64,000 nt of DNA from NCBI RefSeq assembly GCF_003952505.1, contig NZ_CP034450.1, positions 2,914,001 through 2,978,000 of the forward strand, in the 5' to 3' direction. The translations under genes were made by a program, and so were the position numbers. Position 1 is the stretch's first letter. Each line of letters opens with the position of its first letter. Below are positions 38,943-58,068 of the stretch, piece by piece. The notes under the pieces were generated by a model. The model was given only the letters and a program-made list of their open reading frames with translations. It was not told the DNA's origin and ran no database searches. The stretch is from Mesorhizobium sp. M4B.F.Ca.ET.058.02.1.1 (GTDB lineage Bacteria > Pseudomonadota > Alphaproteobacteria > Rhizobiales > Rhizobiaceae).

Positions 38943-38979
38943 CGGGTTCCGGGACCCCGGCCGGCTTGGCGTTTGCGCA

Positions 38980-40623: not shown

Positions 40624-40677
40624 TTTGTCCCTCTTTGAAATTGGATTGGAATGAAACTGGAATGGATGCAGCCGCCG

Positions 40678-41451: not shown

Positions 41452-41463
41452 GGTGGCTCTCCT

Positions 41464-42822
41464 TCAGGATACGGCGCGCTGGTTGGTGCGCTGCTCGGCG
41501 AAGCGGTTCGCGGGACGGGCGAGGCCGAAGCGGTCGCGCAGCGTCCCGGGCGCGTATTCGGTCGGGAAGACGCCGCGGCGCTGCAGTTCGGGCACAACCT
41601 GGGCGGCGAAGTTGATCCAGTCCTCCGGCAGCAGCGGGAACATCAGGTTGAAGCCGTCGGCAGCACCCGCCTCGAACCAGTCCTGCAATTGGTCGGCGAT
41701 CTGCTTCGGCGTGCCGGCGACGGTCGGCACCGAGCCGCTGTTGGCGAGTTTTCGCGCGATCTCGCGCAGCGTCAGGTTCTGCGAGGCCCAGTGCTTGACG
41801 CGGTTGAGCGAGGTGCGCCCGCCATTGAAGGTGCTTTCGTCGGGGAGCTGCGGCAGCGGGCCGTCCGGCGGATAGGCCGAGAGGTCGATGCCGCTCCAGC
41901 TCGACAGGAGATCGATGCCGACGCGATCGGGGAGCAGCGTCTGCAGGTAATCCTGCCTGTCGCGCGCCTCGGCCTCGGAAGCCGCGACGATCGGCAAAAT
42001 GCCCGGCAGGATCTTGAAGCTCTCCGGCCGCCTGCCGTGACGGGCGAGACGGTCGTTGATGTCCTGGCGGTATCTGATGCCGTCTTCCCTGGTGCTGAAG
42101 ATGGCGAAGTGGGCGTCGGCGTGCGCGGTGGCGAAATTCTTGCCGTCCTCGGACGAACCGGCCTGGACGATCAGCGGATGACCCTGCGGCGGGCGCGAGA
42201 CGTTGAGCGGCCCGCGCACCTTGAAATGGGCGCCGCGATGGTCGAGCACATGGACCTTGTCCGGATCGGCGAAATAGCCGGTGTCCTTGTCGAAGAGCAG
42301 GGCTTCGTCTTCCCAGCTGTCCCACAACCCCTTGACGATATCGAGGAATTCGGCGGCGCGCTGGTAGCGGGAGGCGTGCTCGATATTGCCGTCGCGGCCG
42401 AAATTGCGCGCCTCCTCGTCCATGGCCGAGGTGACGACGTTCCACGACGCCCTGCCCCCGCTGATATGGTCGAGCGAGGCGAACAGGCGCGCCACATTGT
42501 AAGGTTCGCTGTAGGAGCTCGACGCGGTGGTGATGAGGCCGATGTGCCTGGTCACGCCGGCAAGCGCCGACAAGAGCGTCAGCGGCTCGAGGCGGGCGTT
42601 GGCGTAATGCGCGACACCGCTCTTCACCGAATCCCAGATCGACACGTGGTCGGCGACGAAGATGGTGTCGATCCTGGCGCGCTCGGCAGCCTGGACCAGC
42701 TTGCGATAGTAATCGAAGCCGAGCACTTCGCGGCCCGGCGCGCGCGGGTGCCGCCAGGACATACGATGGTCACCCTGCGGGTTGAAGAAGAACGCGCTGA
42801 GGATCAAGTGGTCTCGCGCCAT
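41464..42822 (-). CDS. NtaA/SnaA/DszA-type LLM flavin monooxygenase
   Basis: 452 residues from ATG 42822 (MARDHLILSAFFFNPQGDHR), preceded by GGAGG; earlier ATGs lack a site. Family marks: SWRHPRAPG, YYRKLVQAAERARIDTIFVA, VTSAMDEEARNFGRD, HPLIVQAGSSEDGKNFAT and GTPKQIADQLQDWFEAGAAD. DszA/NtaA enzymes use FMNH2 to oxidise sulfones, aminopolycarboxylates or similar compounds. It heads the operon with DUF427 and the dipeptide-type importer. MsuE at 20535 or another reductase must supply FMNH2. The sulfur motif is at 42923-42932. Confidence 0.9.
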   Translation of the reverse strand: MARDHLILSAFFFNPQGDHRMSWRHPRAPGREVLGFDYYRKLVQAAERARIDTIFVADHVSIWDSVKSGVAHYANARLEPLTLLSALAGVTRHIGLITTASSSYSEPYNVARLFASLDHISGGRASWNVVTSAMDEEARNFGRDGNIEHASRYQRAAEFLDIVKGLWDSWEDEALLFDKDTGYFADPDKVHVLDHRGAHFKVRGPLNVSRPPQGHPLIVQAGSSEDGKNFATAHADAHFAIFSTREDGIRYRQDINDRLARHGRRPESFKILPGILPIVAASEAEARDRQDYLQTLLPDRVGIDLLSSWSGIDLSAYPPDGPLPQLPDESTFNGGRTSLNRVKHWASQNLTLREIARKLANSGSVPTVAGTPKQIADQLQDWFEAGAADGFNLMFPLLPEDWINFAAQVVPELQRRGVFPTEYAPGTLRDRFGLARPANRFAEQRTNQRAVS

Positions 42823-42922
42823 GCCGGCCTCCATGCACATCCGCTTGGAGAGACACGGGGTTCCCGTGTCGATCGGTGCGACCCGCAATCTCCAATTTGC
42901 AACAGGCTAGATTGCGCTCGGC

Positions 42923-42932
42923 TTTAAGTCGA
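42923..42932 (-). promoter_or_regulatory. Shared sulfur-operon motif in the divergent promoter
   Basis: Minus strand TCGACTTAAA, about 101-110 bases before the LLM gene and 86 before the divergent ATPase. It differs from the other three copies at one core base. Confidence 0.38.
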
Positions 42933-43017
42933 GTAATTTTATAGAGATTATGTACTAAATAAGCGGAAGCGATTGCCCTTGATTAGGGCTTCGGCAGAAA
43001 GCGATTTCGAGGTCTTG

Positions 43018-44823
43018 ATGTCTTCTTCAGTGCTCAATGTGGAAAAACTTTCCATCGCCTATGATGGGAAAAGAGGATGGCAATCCGCTGTTGACGGCGT
43101 TTCGCTGACTGTCGCAGAGGGTGAGGCGCTCGGCCTGGTCGGCGAATCCGGCTCGGGTAAAAGCTCGGTGGCCATGGCCATCCTTCGCTATCTGCCCGGC
43201 AACGCCCGTATCGCTGCCTCGGCGCTGGAGTTCCAGGGCCGGGAAATACGCAACCTTTCCGGCGACGAGCTGCGTGGCCTGAGAGGCGATCGCATCGCGG
43301 CCGTCTACCAGCATCCAGGCGCCGCGCTCAGCCCGGCGATGACGATCGGCCGCCAGATCGGCGAGACGATCATGCGCCATCGGCCAGTTCGCCATGAGGA
43401 GGCCCGCTGGCGCTCGGCCGAGCTGCTGAAACGTGTGCGGGTCGCCAATCCCGAGCGCGTGCTCGACCTTTATCCGCACGAATTGTCCGGCGGCATGCAG
43501 CAGCGCGCCAACATCGCGATTGCGATTGCGCTCGACCCGGCGCTGCTGGTGATGGACGAGCCGACGACGGCGCTCGATGCCAGCGTGCAGGCCGAGATCA
43601 TCGCCATCCTGGACGATCTGCGTCGGGAACACAAAACCAGCATTCTGCTGATCAGCCATGACATCAATTTGATCCGCCGCTCCTGCGATCGCGTAGCGGT
43701 GATGCAGGCGGGCGCGGTGGTCGAGAGCGGCGATGCCAAGGGTGTTTTCGAAAACCCCTCGCATGCCTATACTAAGGCCCTCATCGCCTCGATCCCGGCG
43801 CTCAATTTCACCAAGCGGGACGGCCGCCTGGCCGAGACCGGCACGACCGTCCGCGATCGCCCCGACGCGACCGCGGCCGCCGCCGATCAAAGAGATTCCT
43901 ATCGAAGAAACGGGCAGGTCGCCATCGCCTGCAAGGGGATCAGCCATTCCTTCGGCGACCAGGCGGTGCTGCACAATGTCGACCTCGAGATCGGCCAAGG
44001 CGAGACCTTCGGCCTGATCGGCGAATCCGGCTCCGGCAAATCGACGCTGGCCAGGATCGTCACCGGGCTGCAGACACCGAGCCAGGGATCGGTCGCGCTG
44101 TTCGGCAGGACCGTCGCCGCGCGCGCGGAACGGCGCGCGCAGAGCGAGCGGCGTGACGTCCAGATGGTCTTCCAGTCGCCCGACCGCACGCTCAATCCGC
44201 GCCACCGGATAGGTCGGATCATCAGCCGGCCATTGCGGCGGCTTGCCGGCCTTGGCCGGAGCGATGCAAGGAACCGCGTCGCCGACCTGCTCCGCTCGGT
44301 CAGGCTGGCCGACACGGCCGCGGAACAAAAACCACGCTCGCTCTCCGGCGGCCAGCGGCAGAGGGCGGCGATCGCGCGCGCCTTCGCCGGCGCGCCGAAA
44401 GTGGTGGTGCTGGACGAGCCGACCTCGGCGCTCGACGTCTCGGTGCAGGCCACGGTGCTGAACCTGCTCAACGACCTGCAGCACGACAGGGATACGACCT
44501 ATCTGTTCATCAGCCACGACCTTCGGGTCGTGCGCTACATGGCCGACAGGATCGGCGTGCTCTATCGCGGTCGGCTCGTAGAGACCGGCTCATCCGACCA
44601 AGTCTTTCGTGGACCCAACCACCCTTATACAAAGCTGCTTCTGGAAGCGTCTTCCGACAACTCTCCAACAATCTCCGCGCAAGCTGGGGCTGCGGCCGAT
44701 GCACCATGCAGCGGGTGCGCGTTTGCAGACCGCTGCCCAATCGCCGATCAAGCGTGCCGTAAAACCGAACCGGCGATCAAAGAACTTGAACCGGGTCACT
44801 GGGTCGCTTGTTACAAGTGGTAA
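43018..44823 (+). CDS. Double ABC ATPase (DppD-DppF fusion)
   Basis: 601 residues from ATG 43018 (MSSSVLNVEKLSIAYDGKRG). Two complete ATPase units: first Walker A GESGSGKSS, signature LSGGMQQR, Walker B LLVMDEPTTALDA; second Walker A GESGSGKST, signature LSGGQRQR, Walker B VVVLDEPTSALDV. The C-terminus has the oligopeptide-transporter cysteine cluster (CSGCAFADRCPIADQACR). GsiA-like fusions of this kind energise DppBC-type channels, so it serves the permeases at 37099-38942. It is transcribed divergently from that operon through a shared promoter region of about 200 bases. Confidence 0.92.
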   Translation: MSSSVLNVEKLSIAYDGKRGWQSAVDGVSLTVAEGEALGLVGESGSGKSSVAMAILRYLPGNARIAASALEFQGREIRNLSGDELRGLRGDRIAAVYQHPGAALSPAMTIGRQIGETIMRHRPVRHEEARWRSAELLKRVRVANPERVLDLYPHELSGGMQQRANIAIAIALDPALLVMDEPTTALDASVQAEIIAILDDLRREHKTSILLISHDINLIRRSCDRVAVMQAGAVVESGDAKGVFENPSHAYTKALIASIPALNFTKRDGRLAETGTTVRDRPDATAAAADQRDSYRRNGQVAIACKGISHSFGDQAVLHNVDLEIGQGETFGLIGESGSGKSTLARIVTGLQTPSQGSVALFGRTVAARAERRAQSERRDVQMVFQSPDRTLNPRHRIGRIISRPLRRLAGLGRSDARNRVADLLRSVRLADTAAEQKPRSLSGGQRQRAAIARAFAGAPKVVVLDEPTSALDVSVQATVLNLLNDLQHDRDTTYLFISHDLRVVRYMADRIGVLYRGRLVETGSSDQVFRGPNHPYTKLLLEASSDNSPTISAQAGAAADAPCSGCAFADRCPIADQACRKTEPAIKELEPGHWVACYKW

Positions 44824-45006
44824 GCAGATCACGTCGCGGAAGGAAAGGCGCTAAGTGGCGCCCCGGCGCGGCGGTAGCATTCATGTTCGGACAGAATGAG
44901 CTTGCGGAGACAATTATTACCCAGTCAAGCGCTCGCTTCGAAATTCGCGCCTTCTGGCAAAGCCACCGGCAAGGATAGGCTTCGGTGAAAATGAAACCTG
45001 TTCGAA

Positions 45007-45381
45007 GTGGAAGTTCCGTTGACCTCAGCCAATCCAGACAAAGCCGCGCTTTTCCTGCTTGCCCCCGATTTCGAGGACGCCAAATTTCCGGGTCAGCACT
45101 TCTTCTGCCGGCACTCGGCGCTGGTCGAAGGCGTGCTGACCTCGTTTCCGGCACTTCTCGATGCGATCGAAGTCCGCCGCATCGCCTTTCCGCGACCACG
45201 CGCCGAAGTGGTCGAGCTTATCGGCGAAGCCAACCAGGCGCTCCCGGTGCTGGTGCTGCCAGCCGGCCAGTCCTCGGCCTGTGCCAGCGGTGAAGCCAAT
45301 GGCCGCCAGTTCGTCTCCGGAGCGGAGCGCATCATCGACGCTCTAGTCGAAGACAGGTTGATCCCGCCGCCGCACCCATGA
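45007..45381 (+). CDS. DUF3088 protein
   Basis: About 124 residues from GTG 45007; TTG at 45019 is an alternative. The pattern LFLLAPDFEDAKFPGQHFFC, HSALVEGVLTSFPALLDAIE, PRPRAEVVELIGEANQALP and LIPPPHP is that of DUF3088, a thioredoxin-like family of unknown role. Two Cys residues (FFCR and SACAS) are present. Its stop overlaps the start of the LLM remnant, which suggests that it once headed an operon with an LLM monooxygenase and cysteine synthase, both now broken. Confidence 0.8.
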   Translation: MEVPLTSANPDKAALFLLAPDFEDAKFPGQHFFCRHSALVEGVLTSFPALLDAIEVRRIAFPRPRAEVVELIGEANQALPVLVLPAGQSSACASGEANGRQFVSGAERIIDALVEDRLIPPPHP

Positions 45382-45685
45382 TGCCGGCGCTTCGACCAGG
45401 AAGCGCTACGCCGATTACGCCGCCGCACGTCACGATCGCACCTTGCGGGCTCATGGCGAGCGCCGCACGCTTTTCGCCAGCGACATCGTCGGCACCTCGG
45501 AGCAGATCCTGGAGCAATTGGCCAGGGACCCGATCCTGGCCGGCATACCGGAGCTGCGGCTGGAACTGCCTTACGACTTCGAGCAGCACGAATACGAGCA
45601 GATCATCACTGACTTCATCGACCTCATCGCGCCTGCGCTCGGCTGGCGGCGGTACCCAAAGCGGGCTGCGTCCGCGGCAGAATGA
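45377..45685 (+). pseudogene. C-terminal remnant of an LLM flavin monooxygenase
   Basis: The frame from 45377 encodes RYADYAAARHDRTLRAHGER, then FASDIVGTSEQILEQL and DPILAGIPELRLELPYDFEQ ... IAPALGW, the last 90-100 residues of a luciferase-like monooxygenase. There is no barrel core upstream; the preceding 370 bases encode DUF3088 instead. A second, altered copy of this segment is at 52829, in the same orientation. Confidence 0.75.
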
Positions 45686-45736
45686 CGGGGCGGAACAATC
45701 GGGCGCCGTCGGCGCTTCAACGCGACGGGTAACGGA

Positions 45737-46077
45737 ATGCCCAGGATTCACGACAGCACCACGGATCTCATCGGCAACACGCCGCTCCTCTAGCTGCACA
45801 ACTATCGGCGCAAGCGCAATCTCGCCAGCAGGATCGTTGCCAAGATCGAGTATTTCAACCCGGCCGGCAGCATCAAGGACAGGATTGCCTGGGCGATCCT
45901 CAGGGATGCCGAGGAGAACGGCCTCATGTGGATGTGACGAGCGGGAACACGGGCATCGGGCTTGCCGCGGTCGCCGCCTCGCGCGGCTATCGCGCCAAGT
46001 TCTATCTCAGCGACAACATCAGTCCGGACGAATAAGATCCTGCGGCTCTACGGTGCGGAGATCGTCACGGTGGAGAA
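45737..46077 (+). pseudogene. cysK: Cysteine synthase (cysK) remnant
   Basis: ATG 45737 opens PRIHDSTTDLIGNTPLL, then an in-frame TAG (45791). The same frame goes on with LHNYRRKRNLASRIVAKIEY, FNPAGSIKDRIAWAILRDAE (PLP-lysine region, SIKDR), a deletion, then DVTSGNTGIGLAAVAASRGY and RAKFYLSDNISPDE before another stop; KILRLYGAEIVTVEN follows in a shifted frame. Homology ends near 46077. The rest of CysK is missing. The next 299 bases to the cyclase stop hold no recognisable gene. Confidence 0.82.
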
Positions 46078-46376
46078 CGACAAAGCCGTTCGCACCGGCA
46101 GACTTGCGGCGCAAACCGTTGCACTCCTTTGAAAACTTCGGAGCCATGTTTCAAAATGACCGCTATGGGCCGGAAGCAGTAGGTCCGCTTGTGGTGCAGG
46201 AAAAACGACAGCGAAACTTAATATCTCAGCATCCGATGTCCTGAGTTGACCCAGGGCAGACCTTTGGTGTCGCTCGGTGGTCGACTGCTTCGCGCATCGC
46301 TGCTGACATTCGAAACGACGATGTTTGACTACTTGAGGTGCAATGCGCTCCAGGGTCGGCATTGCCAAGCGGCAAA

Positions 46377-47447
46377 TCAGGCAAGGAGCCGCCACATTCG
46401 CACAAGACCTGTGCCACGCAATTCCGTTTCCCCGAGCGGCTCGCAAGCAAAATCCGGTCCGAGCAATTGGTGGGTTGCATCAGAAATACGGATTTCATCG
46501 GGCTCTGCGGCCTTTTGAATGCGCGCGGCGAGATTAACGGTGTCGCCCCACAGGTCATAGACAAACCGCCTTTTGCCTATGACGCCCGCCACGATCGGCC
46601 CGGAGTGAATTCCAATTCTGAGACGTAGCGCTTCGCCCGCGAAGCGCTCTCGCCTGGCCGCCTCCCGCAGCTCAAGCGCATAGTTCGCAATGGCTTGCGC
46701 ATGATCGGATCGCGCGACGGGCAGGCCAGCGACCGCCATGACACAATCGCCGATGGTTTTGATCTTTTCGCAGCCGTATTGTTCCGAGAGCAGATCGGCC
46801 GCCCTGAAGAAATAATTCAGGATAGCGATCGTCGTCGCGGCTCCGACGCTCCGCGCTCTTTCGGTAAAACCGACGATGTCGGCAAAAAGCACACTGACCT
46901 CCGCGTGGTTGTCTGCAATTTGCTCGTCCGCTTTCAGCCGCTCCGCGATCGACGCCGGAAGAATGTTGAGGAGCAGGGATTCGGCGCGCCGGTATTCGCG
47001 CGACAGACCCTCCTGGCTCTCCCTTAACGCCTCGTTCGTCGATTGCAGCTTCGCATTGAGTTCACGCTCCCTCTCCTGCAGGAGCGTCATTTCATAAGCC
47101 TTTTGCTGAAGCCGCTGCTGATGGTCGCGTTCTGGCGTGGCGTCGAGAAAGAGCAGCCACACCGAGCCGCTGTCGTCAAAGAAATGAAGGTCCGCGACAC
47201 GCCCGCCGGGCAGTTCCATCATGGGCAAATGGAATGGAAGCTCCGGGCAAGGCAGCAGCCCTTCCATGATTTCGAGTTGATCGGCAACGGGCTCGCCAGT
47301 GCGAAGCGCCGAAAGCCCGTAATATCCAAGGTTGCCGCCCTTCGCTTCTATGCATTGCCGGGCGTCGATTTTTAGATATGCGGCAGAGCGCTCTTTAGAG
47401 AAGAAATCGTATATCCAGCTTCTGACTTCTTTCGGCAACCTGGCCAT
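46377..47447 (-). CDS. Adenylyl cyclase with PAS-like N-terminus
   Basis: 356 residues. Residues about 1-105 look like a PAS-type sensor (YLKIDARQCIEAKGGNLGYY ... VWLLFLDATPERD); 108-155 is coiled coil; 183-340 is a class III cyclase: VLFADIVGFTER (Asp190), KIKTIGDCVM (Lys229, Asp234), FVYDLWGDTVNLAARI (Asp298, Asn305, Arg309). The Lys/Asp pair at 229/298 is the adenine-specifying pair, so ATP is the likely substrate and cAMP the product. There is no membrane segment. It starts three bases after the GTPase stop: last gene of a four-gene operon. Confidence 0.92.
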   Translation of the reverse strand: MARLPKEVRSWIYDFFSKERSAAYLKIDARQCIEAKGGNLGYYGLSALRTGEPVADQLEIMEGLLPCPELPFHLPMMELPGGRVADLHFFDDSGSVWLLFLDATPERDHQQRLQQKAYEMTLLQERERELNAKLQSTNEALRESQEGLSREYRRAESLLLNILPASIAERLKADEQIADNHAEVSVLFADIVGFTERARSVGAATTIAILNYFFRAADLLSEQYGCEKIKTIGDCVMAVAGLPVARSDHAQAIANYALELREAARRERFAGEALRLRIGIHSGPIVAGVIGKRRFVYDLWGDTVNLAARIQKAAEPDEIRISDATHQLLGPDFACEPLGETELRGTGLVRMWRLLA

Positions 47448-47450
47448 GAT

Positions 47451-47945
47451 CTACTTGGCGACCATCGAGGCAAGCTGACGAAACGCATCGTCGACATGTT
47501 CGCCCGAAAGCGCGCTTGTCAGATAGATTTGCCATCCGCGTTGCTTCAGTTCGTCAATCTCACCATCCGGTATTGCCCAGCGATCGGTCAGATCGGATTT
47601 GTTGAACAGCAATACAAACGGCATGGCACCGAATTCGGCCTCGACGCGCTCGCGCAGCGTAAGCGCCACGGCAAGAGTAGCGGGCCGGGTTCCGTCGACG
47701 ACAAGTACGAGCCCGGTCGCACCTCGCACATAGCTGACGCGGAACGAGCCGATATCGTCTTCGCCTGCCAAATCCCACAAAATCAGATCCACGGTCTTGT
47801 CAGGAAACGCGACGCTTTTCTTGTCGATCTTCACGCCCACCGTGGTCAGGTAGTTTTCCGAGAAGATGCTTTGCACGAACCTGCGCACCAGGCTCGTTTT
47901 GCCGACAGCGAACCCGCCCAACATGCAGATCTTTTTTTGCAGCAT
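47451..47945 (-). CDS. Rab/Ras-like small GTPase
   Basis: 164 residues from ATG 47945 (MLQKKICMLGGFAVGKTSLV). G1 GGFAVGKTS (10-18), G2 Thr34/35, G3 WDLAGED (57-63; Glu62 where Ras has Gln61), G4 NKSD (115-118), G5 TSA (143-145). It is a stand-alone Ras-superfamily GTPase of the bacterial group that includes MglA and Rup proteins. No membrane anchor or lipidation site is seen, so it is cytosolic. It lies 13 bases after the OmpA-like gene and 3 before the adenylyl cyclase. Probable partners are the cytoplasmic domain of the OmpA-like protein and the coiled-coil protein (inference). Confidence 0.92.
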   Translation of the reverse strand: MLQKKICMLGGFAVGKTSLVRRFVQSIFSENYLTTVGVKIDKKSVAFPDKTVDLILWDLAGEDDIGSFRVSYVRGATGLVLVVDGTRPATLAVALTLRERVEAEFGAMPFVLLFNKSDLTDRWAIPDGEIDELKQRGWQIYLTSALSGEHVDDAFRQLASMVAK

Positions 47946-47958
47946 CCTGGGCCCCGCA

Positions 47959-50900
47959 CTACTCCAGGCTGACCGTAACCGAAACCCGGCGATTGGTGGA
48001 GTTCCCAGTTCGACTATTTTCATTTTCGGGCACCGCCGGCTCAAACGTGCCCGCGCCCCGCACCTGCAGCAGTTCCGGAGCGACGCCGCGCTTGTTGAGA
48101 AGCGCGCGAACCGTCTCGGCGCGGGCGGCGCTGATCGACGCGTTGGCCGTCTCACGGCCCGTTGTGTCCGAATGGCCGGTCAACATGAACCGCGCTGTCA
48201 CGCCTGCCTTGCGGGCATTTTCGGCGAATTCCTTCAACTGATCAGCCAATCTGTCAAGCACCGGCGCCTGCTCCGGTCCCGGCACAACCTTGCCGGAAGA
48301 AAAGAAAATATCGGTCGTCTGGATGGCCTCTCTCAAATGATTAAGTTCGGCAAGGTTCAGCTCGCGCAACTGCGAGACATCCAGAATTACTCCGTCCGCC
48401 GAAAGTTGGTCGGCGGCGGCCTGCGCCCGGCCGATCCAGCCGGCAGGAGCCTCGCCCACGACAACGATGCGACCCTGGATGATCGAAAGCTGAACCGATT
48501 TCGGCGGGGACAGCGACGCCGTCAGCCGCTTCACCACGAACTTCGGATCAAGACTCTGATAGAATTGCCACTGTGAATGAACGCGGGCAGGATCAACCCC
48601 CGTTCCGGACAGCAGAGCTTGCGGGTCGGCGGCAAGCGGGTCTCTCAGACCGGAAATGTAGAAATGTCCGCCCCTCTCCGTTTGTTGGGCGACGATGATT
48701 CCCGGTTGAGCCTCAAGTCGCGACACATAATACTGCCAATGCTCCGCCGCGCGTGCATCGGGGCTCACATCATGAACCTTGGAAATGTCGAACTCCGGTC
48801 CGCCTACCGAAAGCTGTCGTGCCGCTGCGCGCGCCCGATCTATCCAGGTGTCGGGAGCCTCACCCTCGGCAACGATGCGGTCATTGACGATCGAAAGGCG
48901 CACGGTATCCGGCGGATACAGCGACGCCGTCAGCCGCTTCAACACGAACACCGGCTCAAGGCTCTGATAGAATTGCCAGCTTGCATGAACGCGAGCGGGA
49001 TCGACCTGCGTCCCGGCCAGCAGCAACTGCGGGTCGACGGCAAGCGGGTCTCTCAGGCCGGTAATATAGAATTGGCCATCGCGCACATTCTGTTGGGCGA
49101 CGATGATGCCGGGCTGCTTCTCCAGTCGCGACACGTAGGCCTGCCAGCGCTCCTCGGGGCTCACATCACGGACACCGGAGATGTCGAAGACCGGGCCGCC
49201 GGCTGAAAGCTGCTGGGCGGCGGTCCGCGCCCGGTTGATCCACGCGGTGGTGGCCTCACCCGCCGCAACGATGCGATCATCGACTACAGAAAGCCGCACC
49301 GAATCCGGCGGCGCCAGCGACGCCGTCAGCCGCTTCAGCACGAACTGCGGCTCAAGACTCTGGTAGAATTGCCAGCTTGCATGAACGCGCGCGGGATCGA
49401 CCTGCGTCTCGGCCAACAGCGAATGCGGGTCGGTGGCAAGCGGGTCTCTCAGACCGGCAATATAGAATTGGCCGTCGCGCACAGTCTGATCGGCGACGAT
49501 GATGCCGGGCTGGGTCGTCAGTCGCGACACATAGGCCTGCCAGCGCTCCTCGGCGCTCACATCGCGGACACCGGAGATGTCGAAGACCGGGCCGCCTGCC
49601 GAAAGCTGCTGGGCGGCGGCCCGCGCGCGGTTGATCCACGTGGTGGTAGCCTCACCCTCGGCGACGATGCGACCGTCGACGACCGAAAGCCGTACCGAAT
49701 CCGGCGGCGCCAGCGACGCCGTCAGCCGCTTCAGCACGAATTCCGGCTCAAGGCTTTGATAGAACTGCCAGTTTGAATGAACGCGGGCGGGATCGACCTC
49801 CGTTCCCGGCAACAGCGACTGCGGGTCAACGGCGAGCGGGTCTCTCAGTCCGGCAATATAGAACTGGCCGCCACGAATTTTCTGCTCGGAAACGACGATC
49901 CCCGGCTGGGTCGCCAGTCGCGACAGATAGGTCTGCCAGCGCTGCCCCGCTTGCCAGGAAAGAAAGAACCAGGCGCCTGCCGCAGTCACAATCAGCAGGG
50001 CTGCCGTCACCACCAGCCACGGGAATCCCTCTTTCGAATCCGAATGCTGCAGCTCGACGCAGGTCTGCAACTGCGTCTCCACGCCGGGCAACTGCGACGT
50101 GTCGCCGTCAAACTCCTCTAAAGCCTGCGAGGATTCATCGTGGATGCGGAGCAATGCATCGCGAATTACGTCATGCAATTCCTCCGGCGGGTTTCCCCGG
50201 ATCACCGCAACCAGCGTCGCAAACGGTCCGACTTCCGACCAGAGACGAAGCTCGCCGAACCGGATGGTGTCCAGGCCGCTGTTCTCTTTCTCGTTGAACG
50301 AGTCCTTCACGAAATCCTGGATTGCGCTGAGCATCGAGGAAATCAGTTGAGGGTCTTCGCTGGTGGCGTTTTCGGCGGTTACATGCGCGATCAAAAGCCC
50401 GGATCTGCGGCTGATCAGAAAGACATGCTCCACGCGATAGACGAGAGAATGCTTGAGAACGACTTCGGAGAAGCTTGTTCCGGTTCTCCAAGCCTCAAAT
50501 CTCCACTTGAGGCCATGCCAGGTAAATATATGCCTTAAAGATTCATTCAGCGACTGGAAGGTCTGGTCGATCTTTTCGCCGATCGACTTGCGAATGGCCG
50601 GCAGAAACACCGGATACAATATATCCGTTAGTGTTTGCGGGTTCTTCTGGATGGACCGCTGCGCGGCCCTTTCTACGGCCGGTGCGAGGGCCTCGCCGAG
50701 TTGCATATGAGACGCGCGCGCGGTTGCGTCGGGGAGAACGTTCCCTACAGCGGCTGCAAGCTGCTCAGGCTCGTCGAGCAGGTGCGTTACGCGTGAAAGC
50801 TCCGAGATTTCGCCGCCGACGAGCAGCTGGCGAAGCCTTTCCAGCCGATGATCGGCGGCTGGAACTCCTTCGTAAAGCGCATGGTTGTCCGGATCGACGT

Positions 50901-51057
50901 TCCGGGCAATTTCCACCAAAAGGCGGGCCAGAGCCTCGCGATCAATCCCGGTATCGTTCGAAGCTGGTCTTTGGGGAAGGCTGATTGGGTCGACGCTCGA
51001 CGTCAAGTTCCGATCAACTCGCTTTCCAGCTACGCTCCGAGTTGCTCTTGCTGCCAA
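47959..51057 (-). CDS. Inner-membrane OmpA-like protein with four tandem repeats
   Basis: 1032 residues from TTG 51057, behind AGGA at 5 bases and overlapping the upstream gene; TTG 51006 is an alternative. Residues 1-345 are cytoplasmic; within them about 205-310 (VEHVFLISRRSGLLIAHV, ISSMLSAIQDFVKDSF, FATLVAVIRGNPP) looks like a longin/roadblock-type alpha-beta fold (inference). TM about 346-367. Four repeats of 132-136 residues start at 373, 505, 637 and 773, each with PGIIV..Q, GLRDPLA, DPARVH, WQFYQSL and a BON-like end (DRIVAEGEA). Residues 905-1032 are an OmpA/MotB domain (FMLTGHSDTTGRETANASIS, STNRRVSV). It would anchor in the inner membrane, bind peptidoglycan outside and face the GTPase inside. 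Confidence 0.9.
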   Translation of the reverse strand: MAARATRSVAGKRVDRNLTSSVDPISLPQRPASNDTGIDREALARLLVEIARNVDPDNHALYEGVPAADHRLERLRQLLVGGEISELSRVTHLLDEPEQLAAAVGNVLPDATARASHMQLGEALAPAVERAAQRSIQKNPQTLTDILYPVFLPAIRKSIGEKIDQTFQSLNESLRHIFTWHGLKWRFEAWRTGTSFSEVVLKHSLVYRVEHVFLISRRSGLLIAHVTAENATSEDPQLISSMLSAIQDFVKDSFNEKENSGLDTIRFGELRLWSEVGPFATLVAVIRGNPPEELHDVIRDALLRIHDESSQALEEFDGDTSQLPGVETQLQTCVELQHSDSKEGFPWLVVTAALLIVTAAGAWFFLSWQAGQRWQTYLSRLATQPGIVVSEQKIRGGQFYIAGLRDPLAVDPQSLLPGTEVDPARVHSNWQFYQSLEPEFVLKRLTASLAPPDSVRLSVVDGRIVAEGEATTTWINRARAAAQQLSAGGPVFDISGVRDVSAEERWQAYVSRLTTQPGIIVADQTVRDGQFYIAGLRDPLATDPHSLLAETQVDPARVHASWQFYQSLEPQFVLKRLTASLAPPDSVRLSVVDDRIVAAGEATTAWINRARTAAQQLSAGGPVFDISGVRDVSPEERWQAYVSRLEKQPGIIVAQQNVRDGQFYITGLRDPLAVDPQLLLAGTQVDPARVHASWQFYQSLEPVFVLKRLTASLYPPDTVRLSIVNDRIVAEGEAPDTWIDRARAAARQLSVGGPEFDISKVHDVSPDARAAEHWQYYVSRLEAQPGIIVAQQTERGGHFYISGLRDPLAADPQALLSGTGVDPARVHSQWQFYQSLDPKFVVKRLTASLSPPKSVQLSIIQGRIVVVGEAPAGWIGRAQAAADQLSADGVILDVSQLRELNLAELNHLREAIQTTDIFFSSGKVVPGPEQAPVLDRLADQLKEFAENARKAGVTARFMLTGHSDTTGRETANASISAARAETVRALLNKRGVAPELLQVRGAGTFEPAVPENENSRTGNSTNRRVSVTVSLE
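48345..49941 (-). repeat. Four tandem coding repeats (about 396 bp)
   Basis: Units start near 49941, 49545, 49149 and 48741 on the minus strand, periods 396, 396 and 408 bases. Units 1 and 2 are most alike, unit 4 most diverged. High nucleotide similarity makes unit gain or loss by recombination likely. Confidence 0.9.
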
Positions 51058-51679
51058 CGGGATCCTGATTTAGACATTTTGCGACCTCGACAAACAGGCC
51101 GGCCAAAAGATTTCGGTCGGTCTTGACGTTGCTGAGATCGGAAAAGATCTTCTCCATCAGCATTTGAGCGCTTTCATTCTTTTGCTTGATTTCCTCGCGC
51201 AGCAAATGGTCGCTTCTGTTCATGCGATCCGCTATTTCGCGCTCGAGCTCGCTCAATTGATCTGACAACGCGCGCACCTGCTTTTCAAGCGCCTGATTCT
51301 GATCGCGAAGATTGCGGTCGATCTCCTTGTCGGCCTCGGCTCGCGCATCTTTTTCGTTCCGCAACTGCGTCGCCAGCGAGTCAACCTGCTTCTTCGCATT
51401 TGACTCGTAGGTTTCAAGATTGCGCTTGGCTTCGGATTCGACATCCTTGAAGCGCTGCAGGAACCGCTCTTCAAGCTTGGAGAAGCGGCGGTCATAGTCC
51501 TGCATCTGGTTGCCGAACAAAAGATCGCGTATCTTGTCGACACCTGGAGCGTCACCGCCGGCCCCGCCCTCGCGAGCCTGGGCCGCCATGAAGTTCAGCC
51601 CGTTACCCTCTGCGTTTCCTATCAGATTTGCCTCCGCTTTACTTGCTGAAGAAGCGGCATTCGCAGAGTCCTTTGCCAT
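51014..51679 (-). CDS. Coiled-coil protein of the GTPase-OmpA operon
   Basis: 221 residues from ATG 51679. The N-terminal 50 residues are Ala/Gly-rich and flexible; about 60-175 is heptad-rich coiled coil (KLEERFLQRFKDVESEAKRN, QALEKQVRALSDQLSELERE); the end (LAGLFVEVAKCLNQD) is a short helix. There is no signal or membrane segment. It is first gene of the operon and its last 44 bases overlap the start of the OmpA-like gene. It may be an effector or scaffold for the GTPase (inference). I do not recognise a named family. Confidence 0.8.
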   Translation of the reverse strand: MAKDSANAASSASKAEANLIGNAEGNGLNFMAAQAREGGAGGDAPGVDKIRDLLFGNQMQDYDRRFSKLEERFLQRFKDVESEAKRNLETYESNAKKQVDSLATQLRNEKDARAEADKEIDRNLRDQNQALEKQVRALSDQLSELEREIADRMNRSDHLLREEIKQKNESAQMLMEKIFSDLSNVKTDRNLLAGLFVEVAKCLNQDPVGSKSNSERSWKAS

Positions 51680-51932
51680 CCTTACACCCCATCGCCCAAT
51701 GAGAAATTCGGAAACGAGAATTTATGTCAGACAAATACCCGGGCCGCAAGCCGGAATCCTCTTGGCTTAGGCCGATTCGCGCGTGTCTTCCGATGCGGGG
51801 CCCAACGCCAGAAGGAAGGTCTTCTTTCGAATGGAGAATGGCTGTTCGAGAATGCAGGGACAACGACTGTGGTCAAATCGCCGGTTCCCTGGGACGGCAC
51901 CGACGGCTACAACCTTCCCAACCTCAATGCCG

Positions 51933-52187
51933 GCCTTGCTTTGGGACGCCATCGGAACCGAATTCGGCGGACGCCACGAACTGTATGAACGAAACTATGC
52001 CGGCAACTACGAGAACCTGAGGATCGAAACCCTGAACGCCGCCACCGCGACCGGAGATCTGGCCTCGATGCAATCGATCGTGAAGGACTGCATGAGCGAA
52101 TATGATCTTTCCGGCTGGACGAGTTCAGACCTCATCAATCCGGACGACATCAGCCTCGTCGGCCGAGGCACCGTTCAGGCGGCATAG
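51933..52187 (+). pseudogene. C-terminal remnant of an HpaB-type flavin hydroxylase
   Basis: The frame ending at 52187 encodes [40 protein letters not shown] and [20 protein letters not shown], the usual C-terminus of 4-hydroxyphenylacetate 3-hydroxylase (HpaB) family enzymes. The large N-terminal part is absent; upstream bases to 51740 hold open frames in shifted phases that I cannot place. It lies beside the promoter side of the GTPase operon. Confidence 0.65.
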
Positions 52188-52508
52188 AATGGTGGGACCG
52201 TTCCCTCGTGCAGGAGCGGTCCAACTCCTCCCTCTCCGAGGCCGTATGCCAAGGCTGCGAAACGGGGAAAAATGCTTGCCGTGGACCTACCTGCGACCTA
52301 GGGCGAGCGAACCTAAACCAACTCCACTTCCACCAGGCCCGCCACCTTCGCCAAGCTCAAGGCAGATCTTCGCGCAAAAGCCATCAGAACTATCGCCTGA
52401 CTGATAGGATGTCCGCTTTTCGGATGCGCCCGTAGTCGGCTCAATAACCGATATGGGGCGTTCGCGGCTCCACCGAGACAGTAGAGCCGCTTCCAGTCAG
52501 TCAGATAG
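52188..52508. other. Intergenic, nothing recognised
   Basis: 321 bases between the HpaB remnant and the integrase remnant. Frames on both strands are short and Arg/Gln/Pro-rich. Confidence 0.45.
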
Positions 52509-52828
52509 TCAGACCTGCGTCCCTTCGGCTAGCTCGAGGGCATCTTCTACGTCGACCCCGAGATATCTCGATCTTGGTATGGCCCAGCAAAATCTGGACC
52601 GCGCGCAGGTTACCGGTCGCCTTGTAGATAAGCGATGCTTTGGTACGCCTCAGCGAATGCGTGCCGTATTCCTGCGGCCGAAGTCCGATTGCCACAACCC
52701 ATTCATGGACGAGGCGGGCATACTGTCTCGTGCTCATGTGACCCTTTGGGTCCACCCTGCTCGGAAATGCATAGTCATCGACCGTACCGCCGCGCGCTTC
52801 CAGCCACGCGAGAAGACTGGATCGCGCG
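52509..52828 (-). pseudogene. Tyrosine recombinase remnant (catalytic half)
   Basis: The minus strand from 52828 encodes RSSLLAWLEARGG, FPSRVDPKGHMSTRQYARLV, then HSLRRTKASLIY and LRAVQILLGHTKIE: the HxxR and GHT boxes of phage-type integrases. After KIE the frame slips and YLGVDVEDALELAEGTQV follows in another phase, so the catalytic Tyr is separated by a small deletion. The N-terminal half is gone, cut exactly where the LLM-cysK repeat begins (52829). Confidence 0.8.
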
Positions 52829-53290
52829 TCGCCAGCGACATCGTCGGCACCTCGGAGCAGATCCTGGAGCAATTGGTCAAGGACCCGATCCTGGCCGGCA
52901 TACGGGAGCTTCGGCTGGAGCTGCCCAACGACTTCGAGCAGCACGAATACGAGCAGATCATCACGGACCTCATCGGCAACACGCCGCTGCTCGAACTGCA
53001 CAGCTACCGGCGCAAGGGCAATCTCGCTGGCCGCATCGTCGCCAAGATCATTTCAACCCGGCCGGCAGCATCAAGGACAGGATTGCCTGGGCGATCCTCA
53101 GGGACGCCGAGGAGAACGGCAACATCCAGCCAGGTGGGCCATCGTGGATGTGACCAGCGGAAACACCGGCATCGGCTTCGCTGCCGTTGCGGCCTCGCGG
53201 GACTATCGCGCGAAATTCTGTCTCAGCGACAACATCAGCCCGGACAAGGTCATGATCCTGCGGCTCTGCGGTGCGGAGGTTGTTACACAT
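52829..53290 (+). pseudogene. LLM-cysK chimeric remnant (second copy)
   Basis: It starts with ASDIVGTSEQILEQLVKDPI and runs in frame through EYEQIITD straight into LIGNTPLLELHSYRRKGNLA of cysteine synthase. Compared with the copy at 45474-46077 it lacks 144 bases between GACCTCATCG and GATCTCATCG, a deletion between short direct repeats that keeps frame. A 4-base deletion then breaks the frame after AKI; FNPAGSIKDR, SGNTGIGFAAVAASRDY and KVMILRLCGAEVVT continue in other phases. No functional CysK can be made. Confidence 0.82.
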
Positions 53291-53412
53291 CAACGGGATG
53301 CTCGCCAGCGCGATCTGGTTCTGGCTGCGATGCGATTCATCCGCTTGGCCGGGTGCCTAACATCGCCAGCTTGGCGCTCTATCTGCTGTTGGGCTAACCT
53401 GGAAGCTAATCG

Positions 53413-53586
53413 ATGATAGACGAACGCAAGAAGCTGGCGGTGGTGGTATTGTGGGTGATCGGCGGGATCGCGGTGAGCCGTTTCTGGGGTGACGCGATCT
53501 TCGCTTTTGGTGGCGAGCAGCTGACTGTCGGCGCGGGCCTCGCTTATTTCGGATTGTTAGTGCTCTTCATCGAAGATTCCGCCTAG
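53413..53586 (+). CDS. Small membrane protein (57 residues)
   Basis: ATG 53413 opens MIDERKKLAVVVLWVIGGIA, with two hydrophobic segments (about 8-21 and 41-53) joined by a polar loop and ending FIEDSA. Composition and topology look real. There is no strong ribosome site. The family is unknown; it could be phage-derived. Confidence 0.45.
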   Translation: MIDERKKLAVVVLWVIGGIAVSRFWGDAIFAFGGEQLTVGAGLAYFGLLVLFIEDSA

Positions 53587-53710
53587 CTTGCTAAAGCGCG
53601 TCGCGCCGAAACGGATTCAGGCGACGCGCTTAAGCCCTTTGTTTTTATGACCTGTCGTTGCCCCAGAAAACGCCCACACTTCTGGGCGACATGCATTAGG
53701 AGGCTGAGGC

Positions 53711-53854
53711 ATGATCGATGCGCTAAAGTGGATCGGTTCCTTGCTCTGCGCTGCCGCGCTGGCGTTTTTGATTTATATTCACAGCGACGAGCAGCGACTG
53801 CGTGACTTCGAAAATTGGATCAACTATTTCGCCGACGTGGCGAGCAATGAATAG
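53711..53854 (+). CDS. Small membrane-anchored protein (47 residues)
   Basis: ATG 53711 behind TAGGAGGCTGAGGC, a strong ribosome-binding site. The product has one N-terminal membrane segment (LKWIGSLLCAAALAFLIYI) and a charged C-terminal tail (EQRLRDFENWINYF). The family is unknown. It lies 125 bases before the sulfate-binding protein gene on the same strand. Confidence 0.55.
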   Translation: MIDALKWIGSLLCAAALAFLIYIHSDEQRLRDFENWINYFADVASNE

Positions 53855-53978
53855 GCGCGCCGGTCTCCCGTCACCCCGCCTCGTAGCGGGCAAATCTGTG
53901 AATCGCTACCGCTCGACCCCTTGCCGTGACGCCAGTCCTCATTAGGATAGAGTTCGGCCGTCATCAACGGAGGCGGAA

Positions 53979-55007
53979 ATGACCAAACCTCATTTCAAGA
54001 AACTGCTTGGCGCGCTGGTCGCCTCATCTGTCCAGTTCGGCACGCTCGGTTTGGCGTTCGCCGATACGACCCTTCTCAACGTGTCCTACGACCCGACGCG
54101 TGAGCTCTACAAGGCCTATGACGAGGCTTTCGCCGCGCACTGGAAGGCCGAGACCGGCGAGACCGTGACCATCCAGCAGTCGCATGGCGGATCGGGCGCG
54201 CAGGCCCGCGCCGTGATCGATGGCCTCGACGCCGACGTGGTGACGCTGGCGCTCGAAGGGGACATCAACGCCATCGTCTCGAAGGCGAAGAAGATCAATC
54301 CGGACTGGCGCAAAAAGTTCGAGAACAATTCGGCCCCTTACACCTCGACCATCATCTTCCTGGTTCGCAAGGGCAACCCGAAGGGCATCCATGACTGGAA
54401 CGACCTGATCAAGGACGGCGTCCAGGTGATCACGCCCAACCCGAAGACCTCCGGCGGCGCGCGCTGGAACTATCTCGCCGCCTGGGCCTATGCCAACGCC
54501 AATGACGGCGGCGACGAGGCCAAGACCAAGGAATTCATCGCCAAGCTCTACTCCCAAGTGCCGGTCCTCGACACCGGCGCGCGCGGCTCGACCGTGACCT
54601 TCGCGCAAAAGGGCCTGGGCGACGTGCTGCTGGCCTGGGAAAACGAGGCCTATCTCGCGCTCGACGAATTCGGCGCCGACAATTTCGACATCGTCTATCC
54701 GCCGACCTCGATCCTGGCCGAGCCGCCTGTCGCGGTAGTCGACGCCAATGTCGACGCCAAGGGCACGCGCAAGGTCGCCGAGGCCTATCTCGGCTACCTC
54801 TACTCCAAGGAGGGCCAGACGCTGATCGCCAAGAACCACTATCGTCCGGCAAAGCCCGATCTGGTTCCCGCCGAGGACCTCGCCAAACTGCCCGAGATCA
54901 AGCTGATCACCATCGACGATCCGCTTTTCGGCGGCTGGAAGAAGGCACAGCCTTATCATTTCGGCGATGGTGGTATATTCGACCAGATCTACAAGCCCGC
55001 CCAGTGA
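53979..55007 (+). CDS. sbp: Sulfate-binding periplasmic protein
   Basis: 342 residues: Sec signal about 1-28, then the Sbp core: LLNVSYDPTRELYKAYDEAF, QQSHGGSGAQARAV, NSAPYTSTIIFLVRKGNPKG, ITPNPKTSGGARWNYLAAWA and DTGARGSTVTFAQKGLGDVL. These match E. coli Sbp closely and include the sulfate-binding segments. It delivers sulfate or thiosulfate to a CysTWA channel, but no cysTWA genes follow; the next bases are an ssuD remnant and IS110 debris. It is an orphan binding protein that may use a channel encoded elsewhere. Confidence 0.94.
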   Translation: MTKPHFKKLLGALVASSVQFGTLGLAFADTTLLNVSYDPTRELYKAYDEAFAAHWKAETGETVTIQQSHGGSGAQARAVIDGLDADVVTLALEGDINAIVSKAKKINPDWRKKFENNSAPYTSTIIFLVRKGNPKGIHDWNDLIKDGVQVITPNPKTSGGARWNYLAAWAYANANDGGDEAKTKEFIAKLYSQVPVLDTGARGSTVTFAQKGLGDVLLAWENEAYLALDEFGADNFDIVYPPTSILAEPPVAVVDANVDAKGTRKVAEAYLGYLYSKEGQTLIAKNHYRPAKPDLVPAEDLAKLPEIKLITIDDPLFGGWKKAQPYHFGDGGIFDQIYKPAQ

Positions 55008-55167
55008 GGCGCGACGGCCTGACAGTCACGCCGGCCCAACCGGCAAAGGACAGCCACTCTTACTATGCTAAGTCGCCAAACAGAATGGGCCATATGAACC
55101 GGACTTCCATCGCTGGCGCTTTTCGGACACCCACACCTCCGCCGCGCCCAAATTCTAGATCCCAGCC

Positions 55168-55285
55168 GCGTTCCTTGAGGGGGTAGCTCGCCCTGTAGTC
55201 CGAGCCGCGGAAACAGCAGTTCAGCAACATTGAAAGCTTCCTCCAGATGCGGATAAGCGGAGGCGATAATCGTCTCCACACTGGA
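55168..55285 (-). pseudogene. ssuD-like remnant (C-terminal piece)
   Basis: The minus strand encodes VETIIASAYPHLEEAFNVAE, LLFPRLGLQGELPPQG, which matches the end of SsuD-type monooxygenases (compare [18 protein letters not shown] of the intact ssuD here). The rest of the gene is absent. Confidence 0.65.
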
Positions 55286-55764
55286 GTGCAAGCCGACGGC
55301 GTTTCGGGATCAACGTTTGTATTACTCATCAACGATGCCAAGTCCTGACCAAATACAGCGGCCGTCTTAGTCGATTGTTATTTTCGAGACTTTGTCGACA
55401 TCGTATTTCTTCGTCTAGGCTGCGATAATACACGAATCTCTCTGCGCCACGATCCAGCGTTCTCGCGTCGAGTTCCGATGCGCCGTTCCAGTCTCCCGGG
55501 CTCTGCGACGGGGTGTTTGGGCTGCACTTAGGCAGCGCTCGAGCCGTCGTGGCGCACTTTGCCATCGGTCTGACGGAGCATCGTCACAGGCAATCGAGCG
55601 CGGTCCGGCCGTCTTTCGATCGGCGCGGCCGTAGGCAGGATAACGTGAGTTCCGTCGTTCTGGTCTGCATCGGTCCTCATCCGCCGCACCGGGTCTCCTT
55701 GTCTCAGGCGGCGTCCGTCAGCGTGCGGGCGCCATGCGTTTGAACTGCGTTCGCACCGCTCATT

Positions 55765-56200
55765 GTTACGCTCCCAGCAGCTTGCGGGCCTTGTCGTGCG
55801 CATGCCGGCCGGCGTCCGCCTAGCTTGCGGCTGGATCGCCGACATAGAACGTGCCGTCGCTCCAGATCGCGTGCCTGATCACGCCAGCTTGCGCGCCACC
55901 GCGACGCAGGCCTTGCGGTGGCAGGAGCGATTGGCGATCGCTGGCCCCAGCTCTTGACCTTGTCATTGAAGCGCGTCATCAGGTCCTACGCCGCCCCGTA
56001 GAGCGCGCGCCGCACGTCCATGTCGCCAGCCCTCGAGATGCGCCCCCTAGTCAGGCCGAAGTAGGCCGCGACGTCGCGCAAGCGGCGGAAGCGCGACGGA
56101 TCGTCGATCGCGGTCATGAAGCCCACCGCGCTGGCCCAGGGCCGACGCCGGGGATCGCCATAAAGCGACCGATTGACCGCCCGGCTTGGTGGCGGCGCCG
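55765..56200 (-). mobile_element. IS110-family transposase remnant
   Basis: In the minus-strand frame: FMTAIDDPSRFRRLRDVAAY, FGLTRGRISRAGDMDVRRAL, a TAG stop, DLMTRFNDKVKSWGQ, then in a shifted frame SCHRKACVAVARKLA and IWSDGTFYVGD. This is the C-terminal (IS116/IS110/IS902) domain with stops and frameshifts. No intact transposase or ends are visible. Confidence 0.75.
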
Positions 56201-56233
56201 GGCGAGGCTGCGGGGCCATGAATGAGCGCAATG

Positions 56234-56656
56234 CTATGGACGTCCGCCCCGTCTATATTCGCCGGGATCGATAAAGCTCCCCGCCCAAAAGTTACGTTTG
56301 GCAATGCGGGCTTCGCGCTCTTCGGCGTGTTTCACCAGATCGCGTCCGAGATCGATGCCTCCCACGAAGCAGACGCCGACATCGTCGTCATAACGGTCCT
56401 TGCCTTCGATGATGCAGGTTACATCCCCTGCAGCAATAAGATGTTGAATGTGGTCGCGCGCATACTTGCCGCAGGGCCAGATTTTGTCAGCGGCATCGAA
56501 ACACGGCTGCGAAAGTTCGGGGGCATCGATACCAAGCAACTGAACTCGTTTCTTGTCATGCCACAGTGTGTCGCCGTCATGAGCAAACCAATGCTCTGCT
56601 GCGGAAACAGGCCCACAGGTGACCACGAAGGTAAGGGCGAGGATCAACCTGCACAT
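56234..56656 (-). pseudogene. Thermonuclease-family protein, probably inactive
   Basis: 140 residues from ATG 56656 with a signal peptide (LILALTFVVTCGPVSA), then the SNase fold: HDGDTL, VQLLGIDAPELSQPC (Arg and Glu of the active site present), WPCGKYARDHI and WAGSFIDPGEYRRG. The third catalytic residue, Arg in the usual DRYGR, is replaced (DRYDDD), and about 14 residues are missing between LVKHA and the EEREARIAK helix. Exported nucleases of this type are common in rhizobia; this copy looks decayed, though the frame is open. Confidence 0.65.
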
Positions 56657-57352: not shown

Positions 57353-57516
57353 TACGCAACCCTCAATTGGCTAAGACCCTGCCTGTTATTTTGTGAGCGG
57401 TTTGCCGATTTCAAGCTACCTCTTGCGCCGCTTCTCCGGCGTCCTGGCAATGCTGGTGAACTGCAGTTTCCGATCTTTACGCCGACACGCAGGAAGCCGC
57501 TGCGCGACATGGTCGA

Positions 57517-58020: not shown

Positions 58021-58068
58021 CTCGGCGACAAGCGCCGGCGGGGCATTAGGTTCCTTCCGTCGGAGACG

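What the first reader, a model, noticed from the sequence alone, without database searches (positions are those of the whole stretch)
46377..51679. Four-gene envelope switch: coiled coil, OmpA-like repeat protein, Rab-like GTPase, adenylyl cyclase
Seen: four minus-strand genes with a 44-base overlap and gaps of 13 and 3 bases. The 1032-residue protein has a 345-residue cytoplasmic part, one membrane segment, four 132-136-residue periplasmic repeats and an OmpA-like peptidoglycan-binding end. The GTPase has all five G motifs and the cyclase has a complete, adenine-specific active site. Known: MglA-type GTPases and class III cyclases are signalling modules, and OmpA/MotB domains bind peptidoglycan. 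Inference: the set couples cell-wall state or tension to a GTPase and to cAMP across the inner membrane. I know of no named system with this exact set.
Basis: partly seen in the sequence, partly recalled or inferred. Interest (0 to 1): 0.92.

Follow-up and report, generated by a model that had tools for sequence, protein, structure and literature searches.

The report
Wall-tethered bacterial Rab–longin signalling cassette
A four-gene set in a Mesorhizobium-like bacterium joins a cell-wall-anchored membrane protein, a small GTPase like those that steer membrane traffic in our own cells, and an enzyme that probably makes cAMP; the set was described in outline in 2014, but its membrane protein now appears to carry a longin fold, the fold that controls such GTPases in eukaryotes.

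The parts
51680..51784 (-). leader upstream of the operon; homology to the 98%-identical relative L002 ends at 51784
51014..51679 (-). coiled-coil cytoplasmic protein (221 aa), first gene of the set
   Evidence: ORF; only weak, coiled-coil-type profile matches; relatives at the same place in 59 of 67 near loci and in the 47 of 54 further loci that have CC+OmpA+GTPase
50038..50442 (-). longin domain (residues 206-340 in the 1032-aa numbering; model residues 188-322)
50299..50352 (-). longin helix alpha1 (model residues 218-235), conserved, candidate GTPase/dimer face
   Evidence: conservation; role of alpha1 in Mon1-Ccz1 and TRAPP from passages of PMC5216073; the helix itself is modelled at pLDDT about 53-63
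49954..50028 (-). single transmembrane segment
   Evidence: hydropathy
48346..49941 (-). four tandem periplasmic repeats of about 132 aa; 3 or 4 copies in 52 of 59 near-relative ORFs
48013..48276 (-). OmpA-type peptidoglycan-binding domain, Asp964 and Arg979 present
   Evidence: Pfam PF00691; role of the two residues recalled
47451..47945 (-). Rup (Rab-like) small GTPase, 164 aa, G3 WDLAGED without catalytic Gln
46377..47447 (-). output protein: PAS adapter, signalling helix, class III adenylyl-cyclase-type catalytic domain, 356 aa
47139..47447 (-). PAS-fold adapter domain (residues 1-103)
47103..47105 (-). Gln115, Q in 39 of 42 chosen adapters, inside the helix 104-162 that follows the PAS fold; probably the invariant Gln of Wuichet
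46386..46913 (-). cyclase catalytic domain (residues 179-354)
   Evidence: Pfam PF00211 7.4e-49; aligned to adenylyl cyclases 9 and 5; motifs LFADIVGFT, EKIKTIGD, DLWGDTVNLAAR

Best explanation
It is a Group 1 Rup GTPase system with an adenylyl cyclase as output. SHOWN by sequence: an operon-like unit of four genes, inherited and moved together; GTPase without its own catalytic Gln; output protein = swappable enzyme on an adapter with a conserved Gln; one TM segment, periplasmic repeats and an OmpA domain. SHOWN by modelling only: the cytoplasmic part of the OmpA protein ends in a longin domain, and the adapter is a PAS domain followed by a long helix that carries the Gln. INFERRED: the OmpA end grips peptidoglycan and the repeats act as a spacer; on the inner face the longin domain, probably as a dimer and with the coiled-coil protein as helper, holds the Rup GTPase on its alpha1 face, as longin dimers hold Rabs in TRAPP and Mon1-Ccz1, and controls its loading with GTP according to what the wall-tethered part feels or where it sits. 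Rup-GTP docks at the PAS/helix junction of the output protein and shifts the helix, switching the cyclase; the adapter Gln may complete the GTPase active site, so that the effector also times its own release (Wuichet's speculation, placed here on a defined helix).
For: Identity: PMC4316618 section 18 lists the same four parts; the window has each. Linkage: 59 of 67 near loci, the rest cut; CC+OmpA+GTPase in 47 of 54 mostly distant loci, an adapter hit in 35 of these 47; GTPase (E<=1e-30) in 44 and longin-OmpA (E<=1e-15) in 50 of the same 398 genomes, both in 42, and 6 of the 8 OmpA-only genomes have a divergent GTPase directly downstream. Pairwise distances of the four proteins correlate 0.82-0.92 over 35 loci, label-shuffle maximum 0.25 (shared ancestry alone would also give this). 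Longin; strand 1 3.29 and helix alpha1 3.18 bits against 1.6-2.3 for the other strands and helices of the domain; alpha1 is the main Ypt7 site in Mon1-Ccz1 and the Ypt1 site in TRAPP (passages of PMC5216073). Adapter: Q115 in 39 of 42, PAS fold. Output swapping: Guanylate_cyc, SpoIIE, histidine kinase, GGDEF-EAL and GGDEF among 10 chosen proteins. GTPase relatives in PDB: Rab23 5.2e-35 best.
Against: No interaction, GTPase activity or cyclase activity was tested, and complexes were not modelled. The longin model rests on 18 sequences, mean pLDDT 57.7 and pTM 0.41 for the whole piece, no residue at 90 or more; helix alpha1 itself lies in a stretch with means of 53-63. Sequence methods do not see a longin domain: no PDB sequence match of that kind, and one of 26 members touches Pfam Fuz_longin_1 at only E 0.093. 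Three of 54 loci (L117, L154, L158) have a GTPase without the coiled-coil or OmpA gene although about 8 kb upstream were read, so the partner is not strictly obligatory. Twelve of the 47 core loci have no adapter hit by the profile; the ten of these that I aligned were placed by MAFFT only. L155 has GTPase+adapter and longin protein+coiled coil on opposite strands. The Gln is not invariant (L156, L157, L158 differ), and a Gln on a signalling helix may be structural. L173 has coiled coil and longin protein without a detected GTPase.
Confidence: 0.6

Rival explanations
1. The longin domain is only a dimerisation and localisation platform (or a downstream target), not a nucleotide-exchange factor; exchange is spontaneous and the adapter Gln makes the output protein the GAP. 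The set then marks a place on the envelope rather than sensing the wall.
For: Roadblock/longin dimers are described as platforms with varied interfaces, mainly GEFs and occasionally GAPs (passages of PMC10933270 and PMC5216073). The periplasmic part is repeats plus OmpA; Pfam shows no ligand-binding domain there above cut-off.
Against: Conservation is concentrated on strand 1 and helix alpha1, where longin exchange-factor dimers contact Rabs; but alpha1 also lies in the dimer face, so this does not decide.
Confidence: 0.25
2. An anti-phage or envelope-breach defence module: a mobile cassette with a peptidoglycan-bound sensor and a nucleotide-signal output, like Zorya or Pycsar in spirit.
For: In this genome the unit sits as a block between unrelated flanks and beside an integrase fragment; PADLOC hits are PycC for the cyclase (6.1e-15) and weak ZorB/ZorA hits (0.0005 to 0.0095).
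Against: The PycC hit covers the shared cyclase domain; none of the four proteins matches an effector; outputs in relatives include regulatory enzymes (kinase, GGDEF-EAL, SpoIIE); the ZorA-type hits cover only coiled coil; GTPase has no PADLOC hit.
Confidence: 0.07
3. The cytoplasmic fold is a Roadblock/MglB-type domain, so the set is an MglA/MglB-like pair in disguise.
For: Foldseek lists Thermus MglB at ranks 27, 35, 39, 41 and 42 (E 2.8e-3 and above); longin and Roadblock are related by circular permutation (passages of PMC3521125).
Against: Element order b-b-a-b-b-a-a from residue 190 is the longin order (recalled), and the 50 VIA rows shown are longin SNAREs, longin exchange-factor subunits and adaptin/coatomer subunits (absence of a Roadblock row there proves nothing); the GTPase is not MglA-type.
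Confidence: 0.06

Closest known systems
Group 1 Rup GTPase neighbourhoods (Wuichet & Søgaard-Andersen 2014, PMC4316618; abstract, section 18 and passages read)
   Same: Rab-like GTPase lacking the G3 Gln; coiled-coil gene; unknown domain-TM-OmpA gene; output gene with N-terminal Gln; a Mesorhizobium loti member is named
   Different: Paper lists the output as typically GGDEF/EAL or histidine kinase; here an adenylyl-cyclase-type enzyme (SpoIIE phosphatase in some relatives). The unknown domain is modelled here as longin and the N-terminal region as PAS.
Actinobacterial conservons (CvnA-D), as described in PMC4316618
   Same: Four-gene GTPase operon with a membrane signal protein
   Different: MglA-type GTPase, Roadblock CvnB and a histidine kinase CvnA; none of these in the window's set
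MglA/MglB polarity switch
   Same: Small GTPase with a longin/Roadblock-class partner (if the model holds)
   Different: Different GTPase family (G3 DLAGED), no Robl_LC7 match in this genome, partner is membrane- and wall-anchored
Eukaryotic Rab with longin-type exchange factors (TRAPP, Mon1-Ccz1, Fuzzy-Inturned)
   Same: Rab-like GTPase paired with a longin domain; best PDB relative of the GTPase is Rab23, and a chain of the Rab23-Fuzzy-Inturned complex is among the best longin matches
   Different: Bacterial, longin inside a peptidoglycan-binding protein, output is an enzyme of second messengers; no significant sequence match of the longin part
Asgard archaeal Rab, Roadblock and longin proteins (PMC10933270, passages read)
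   Same: Prokaryotic Rab-like GTPases in genomes with longin domains
   Different: Archaeal; no OmpA/adapter/output cassette is described in the passages seen

Membership tests
Group 1 Rup system | Rab/Ras-like GTPase without the G3 catalytic Gln | tested here: met
   WDLAGED in the window; Gly61 Glu62 Asp63 invariant in 12 of 12; Ras Pfam 2.8e-27
Group 1 Rup system | coiled-coil cytoplasmic gene beside it | tested here: met
   coiled coil judged from weak profile matches and by eye
Group 1 Rup system | unknown domain, often TM, C-terminal OmpA | tested here: met
Group 1 Rup system | signal-output gene whose N-terminal region has an invariant Gln | tested here: met
   Q115, Q in 39 of 42; that this is the Gln of their figure 4 is inferred, figures are not held
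Group 1 Rup system | output typically GGDEF/EAL or histidine kinase | tested here: not met
   class III cyclase; the paper says 'typically', so not defining
MglA family | G3 TVPGQ or GTPGQ | tested here: not met
   motif from PMC4316618
MglA family | Roadblock (MglB) partner | tested here: not met
   no Robl_LC7 match at E<=0.001 in the own genome; the same search rings in 3 of 14 controls
Longin domain | longin topology and superposition | tested here: met
Longin domain | sequence-profile match | tested here: inconclusive
   1 of 26 members hits Fuz_longin_1 at E 0.093; no longin among PDB sequence hits
Longin-type Rab exchange factor | binds the GTPase and speeds GDP release | not testable with these tools
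Class III adenylyl cyclase | catalytic domain with metal and purine motifs | tested here: met
   residue roles recalled
Class III adenylyl cyclase | makes cAMP | not tested
   -
OmpA/Pal peptidoglycan-binding domain | family match plus Asp/Arg pair | tested here: met
   PF00691 2.9e-11; Asp964 and Arg979; binding itself not tested
PAS domain | PAS fold | tested here: met
Pycsar defence | cyclase with a cognate effector gene in the unit | tested here: not met
   only the four proteins of the unit were scanned; no effector match

The most novel reading that the evidence does not exclude
Bacteria of at least three phyla (Pseudomonadota, Cyanobacteria, Desulfobacterota) carry a working Rab-longin pair: a Rab-like GTPase whose exchange factor is a longin domain built into a peptidoglycan-tethered membrane protein. 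The pairing taken as a eukaryote/Asgard hallmark of membrane identity would also exist as a bacterial cell-envelope switch with interchangeable second-messenger outputs, either as an independent recruitment of the longin fold or as a relative of the ancestor of Rab-longin control.
Probability: 0.35. Interest if true: 0.9.

Novelty: new variant of a known kind. Interest (0 to 1): 0.72.

Why it matters
No Rup GTPase had been characterised experimentally when the family was described (PMC4316618), and full-text searches of the held library listed no later work on Rup GTPases. Giving the two unknown domains a fold (longin and PAS) turns 'four genes of unknown function' into a testable pathway: wall anchor, longin, Rup, adapter helix, enzyme. 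[quoted passage not shown] PMC10933270 places homologues in Loki and Odin). A bacterial longin next to a Rab-like GTPase bears on where Rab-longin control came from. The swappable outputs make it a natural plug-in sensor head for cAMP, c-di-GMP, kinase and phosphatase pathways.

Tried and rejected
MglA/MglB assignment: rejected. The 44-base overlap: rejected in favour of the conserved TTG at 51006. Defence system: kept only as a low rival. Transposon with terminal inverted repeats: no inverted repeat longer than 9 bases between the two end stretches compared. Promoter/terminator scan: 2 promoter-like sites against 1.4 expected and 9 terminator-like against 7.7, uninformative. Sequence-profile proof of the longin domain: failed. 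A paper with OmpA and small GTPase (PMC7159879) concerns other systems (passages). No Roadblock row stands among the 50 VIA rows shown; that is not evidence against Roadblock. Protein database search (search for homologous proteins) could not be made: switched off. Paper supplements: the cap is 0, so Wuichet's supplementary table S2 was not asked for; whether an adenylyl cyclase neighbour is listed there is unknown.
Full report
WHAT IS THERE. Pfam gives Guanylate_cyc (7.4e-49), Ras (2.8e-27) and OmpA (2.9e-11); the first gene has no family above cut-off and looks like a coiled coil. The GTPase starts at 47945, 13 bases after the OmpA stop, and the cyclase 3 bases after the GTPase stop. The start of the OmpA-type gene needs correcting: in most near relatives the frame opens only at window residue 14, and a TTG at residue 18 (window 51006) is shared by 60 of 61 matches, so the gene probably starts 7 bases after the coiled-coil gene and encodes 1015 residues. 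The periplasmic part has four repeats, 64-83% identical to each other. Of 59 ORFs with the longin-region match in L001-L068, 26 have four copies, 26 three, 3 two, 3 one and 1 five; some of these ORFs are cut, so low numbers may be partial.

IT IS A KNOWN KIND. Wuichet & Søgaard-Andersen 2014 (PMC4316618; abstract, section 18 whole, other passages) describe 'Group 1 Rup' GTPases in neighbourhoods with these parts: a coiled-coil gene, a gene for an unknown domain often followed by a TM helix and an OmpA domain, and an output gene, typically GGDEF/EAL or histidine kinase, whose N-terminal region holds an invariant Gln. They note that these GTPases lack the G3 Gln, speculate that it is supplied in trans, and name a Mesorhizobium loti member. 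The window fits these points except the type of enzyme. The word 'cyclase' occurs once in the main text, for diguanylate cyclase, so an adenylyl cyclase output is not mentioned there.

LINKAGE. A scan of genome contigs gave 343 relatives of the GTPase, of which the best 80 loci were kept. In the near loci L002-L068 the order coiled coil, OmpA-type, GTPase, cyclase holds in 59 of 67; the other 8 are cut by a contig end inside the OmpA gene. In 398 Pseudomonadota genomes the GTPase profile hits 44 at E<=1e-30, in 12 of 212 genera, 30 of the 44 from one family, f38; the longin-OmpA profile hits 50 of the same 398 at E<=1e-15; 42 genomes have both (not in every case on one contig). The two GTPase-only genomes are G172, whose hit lies 729 bases from a contig start, and G266, which I did not fetch. 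Of the eight OmpA-only genomes, six (L167-L172) have a divergent GTPase directly downstream (E 1.3e-21 to 3.1e-27 in five, a piece at 1.8e-08 in L168 at a contig end; in L167 and L172, whose sequences I saw, G3 reads WDTDG[DN]FG); L174 ends inside the OmpA frame; L173 shows no GTPase. In 397 genomes of the own order only 6 hit at E<=1e-30, all of the own genus; this threshold misses the divergent type. Elsewhere 19 of 146 genomes of the phylum of L080 (Scytonema) and 6 of 198 of the phylum of L079 (Desulfobacterales) hit; 15 of the 19 are weak (1e-34 to 1e-40). In a set of 54 mostly distant loci, 47 have coiled coil, longin-OmpA and GTPase, and 35 of those also an adapter hit. Of the 7 others, L118, L130, L152 and L159 are cut by contig ends; L117, L154 and L158 look like real exceptions. 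L155 has the halves on opposite strands. Distance matrices of the four proteins correlate at 0.82-0.92 over 35 loci (label-shuffle maximum 0.25); this shows common history, not contact.

A DISCRETE UNIT THAT MOVES. The relative L002 matches the window at 98.2% from 46365 to 51784 and at neither side beyond, within the 16.5 kb held for it. In other near loci the match ends between about 46160 and 46380 on one side and mostly between 51660 and 51880 on the other. None of 67 near loci shares more than 300 bases with the window's flanks (38300-46376 and 51680-60000) except 386 bases of an integrase region in L010. Among the near loci 56 upstream flanks fall into 21 groups and 64 downstream flanks into 32; the largest groups hold 29 and 20, so there is also a common site in the genus, which the window does not share. 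These four genes plus a leader of about 100 bases thus travel as one block; I saw no fifth gene that is a fixed part.

HOW IT PROBABLY WORKS. Wall anchor, repeat spacer, TM, longin platform, Rup GTPase, PAS-helix adapter, enzyme. The longin domain is the best candidate for the GTPase regulator, since the genome has no match to the Roadblock family. The adapter is the best candidate for the effector, with the Gln as a possible catalytic donor. The coiled-coil protein's role is open; a helper of the longin platform is a guess. I rate the overall mechanism at 0.6 and the identification as a Group 1 Rup system above 0.9.

NOVELTY. The kind is known; the cyclase and SpoIIE outputs, the PAS and longin assignments, and the block mobility are additions. 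In the held library I found no paper that gives the Rup-neighbourhood protein a longin domain or follows up Rup GTPases (searches; listings only unless named here). Most subscription papers and all bioRxiv preprints outside PMC are not in that library. PMC3521125, PMC10933270, PMC4915359, PMC4917890, PMC5216073 and PMC7159879 were seen in passages.

Noticed in passing
window 45474-46029 and 52829-53245: Direct repeats (147, 91, 76 and 102 nt; 94, 86, 96 and 84% identical) on both sides of the cassette, about 7.2-7.4 kb apart: two degraded copies of the same stretch, one at each flank.
   Followed up: partly
window 52501-53001 (-): Fragment of a tyrosine recombinase (Pfam Phage_integrase 6.7e-10) beside the cassette; a 386-base, 94% identical stretch lies about 3.4 kb beyond the cassette in L010 as well.
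   Followed up: partly
L167-L172: A second, divergent subfamily in genomes of the own order, including one of the own genus (G055): short gene with a weak coiled-coil-profile match, longin-OmpA protein, GTPase with G3 WDTDG[DN]FG where seen (L167, L172), and in L172 a kinase-like output by eye.
   Followed up: partly
G-handle family f38: One family of small-genome Pseudomonadota supplies 30 of the 44 GTPase hits; the outputs that I read there look like short class III cyclases (by eye; Pfam only for L113).
   Followed up: partly
L174:147-2834: Three tandem, nearly identical ORFs of about 290-306 aa upstream of the coiled-coil gene; identity not searched.
   Followed up: no
window 41464-42888 (-), 42973-44823 (+), 53979-55007 (+): Neighbours are a luciferase-like monooxygenase and a solute-binding protein and an ORF that looks like an ABC transporter ATPase (by eye): they look like ordinary metabolic genes.
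   Followed up: partly
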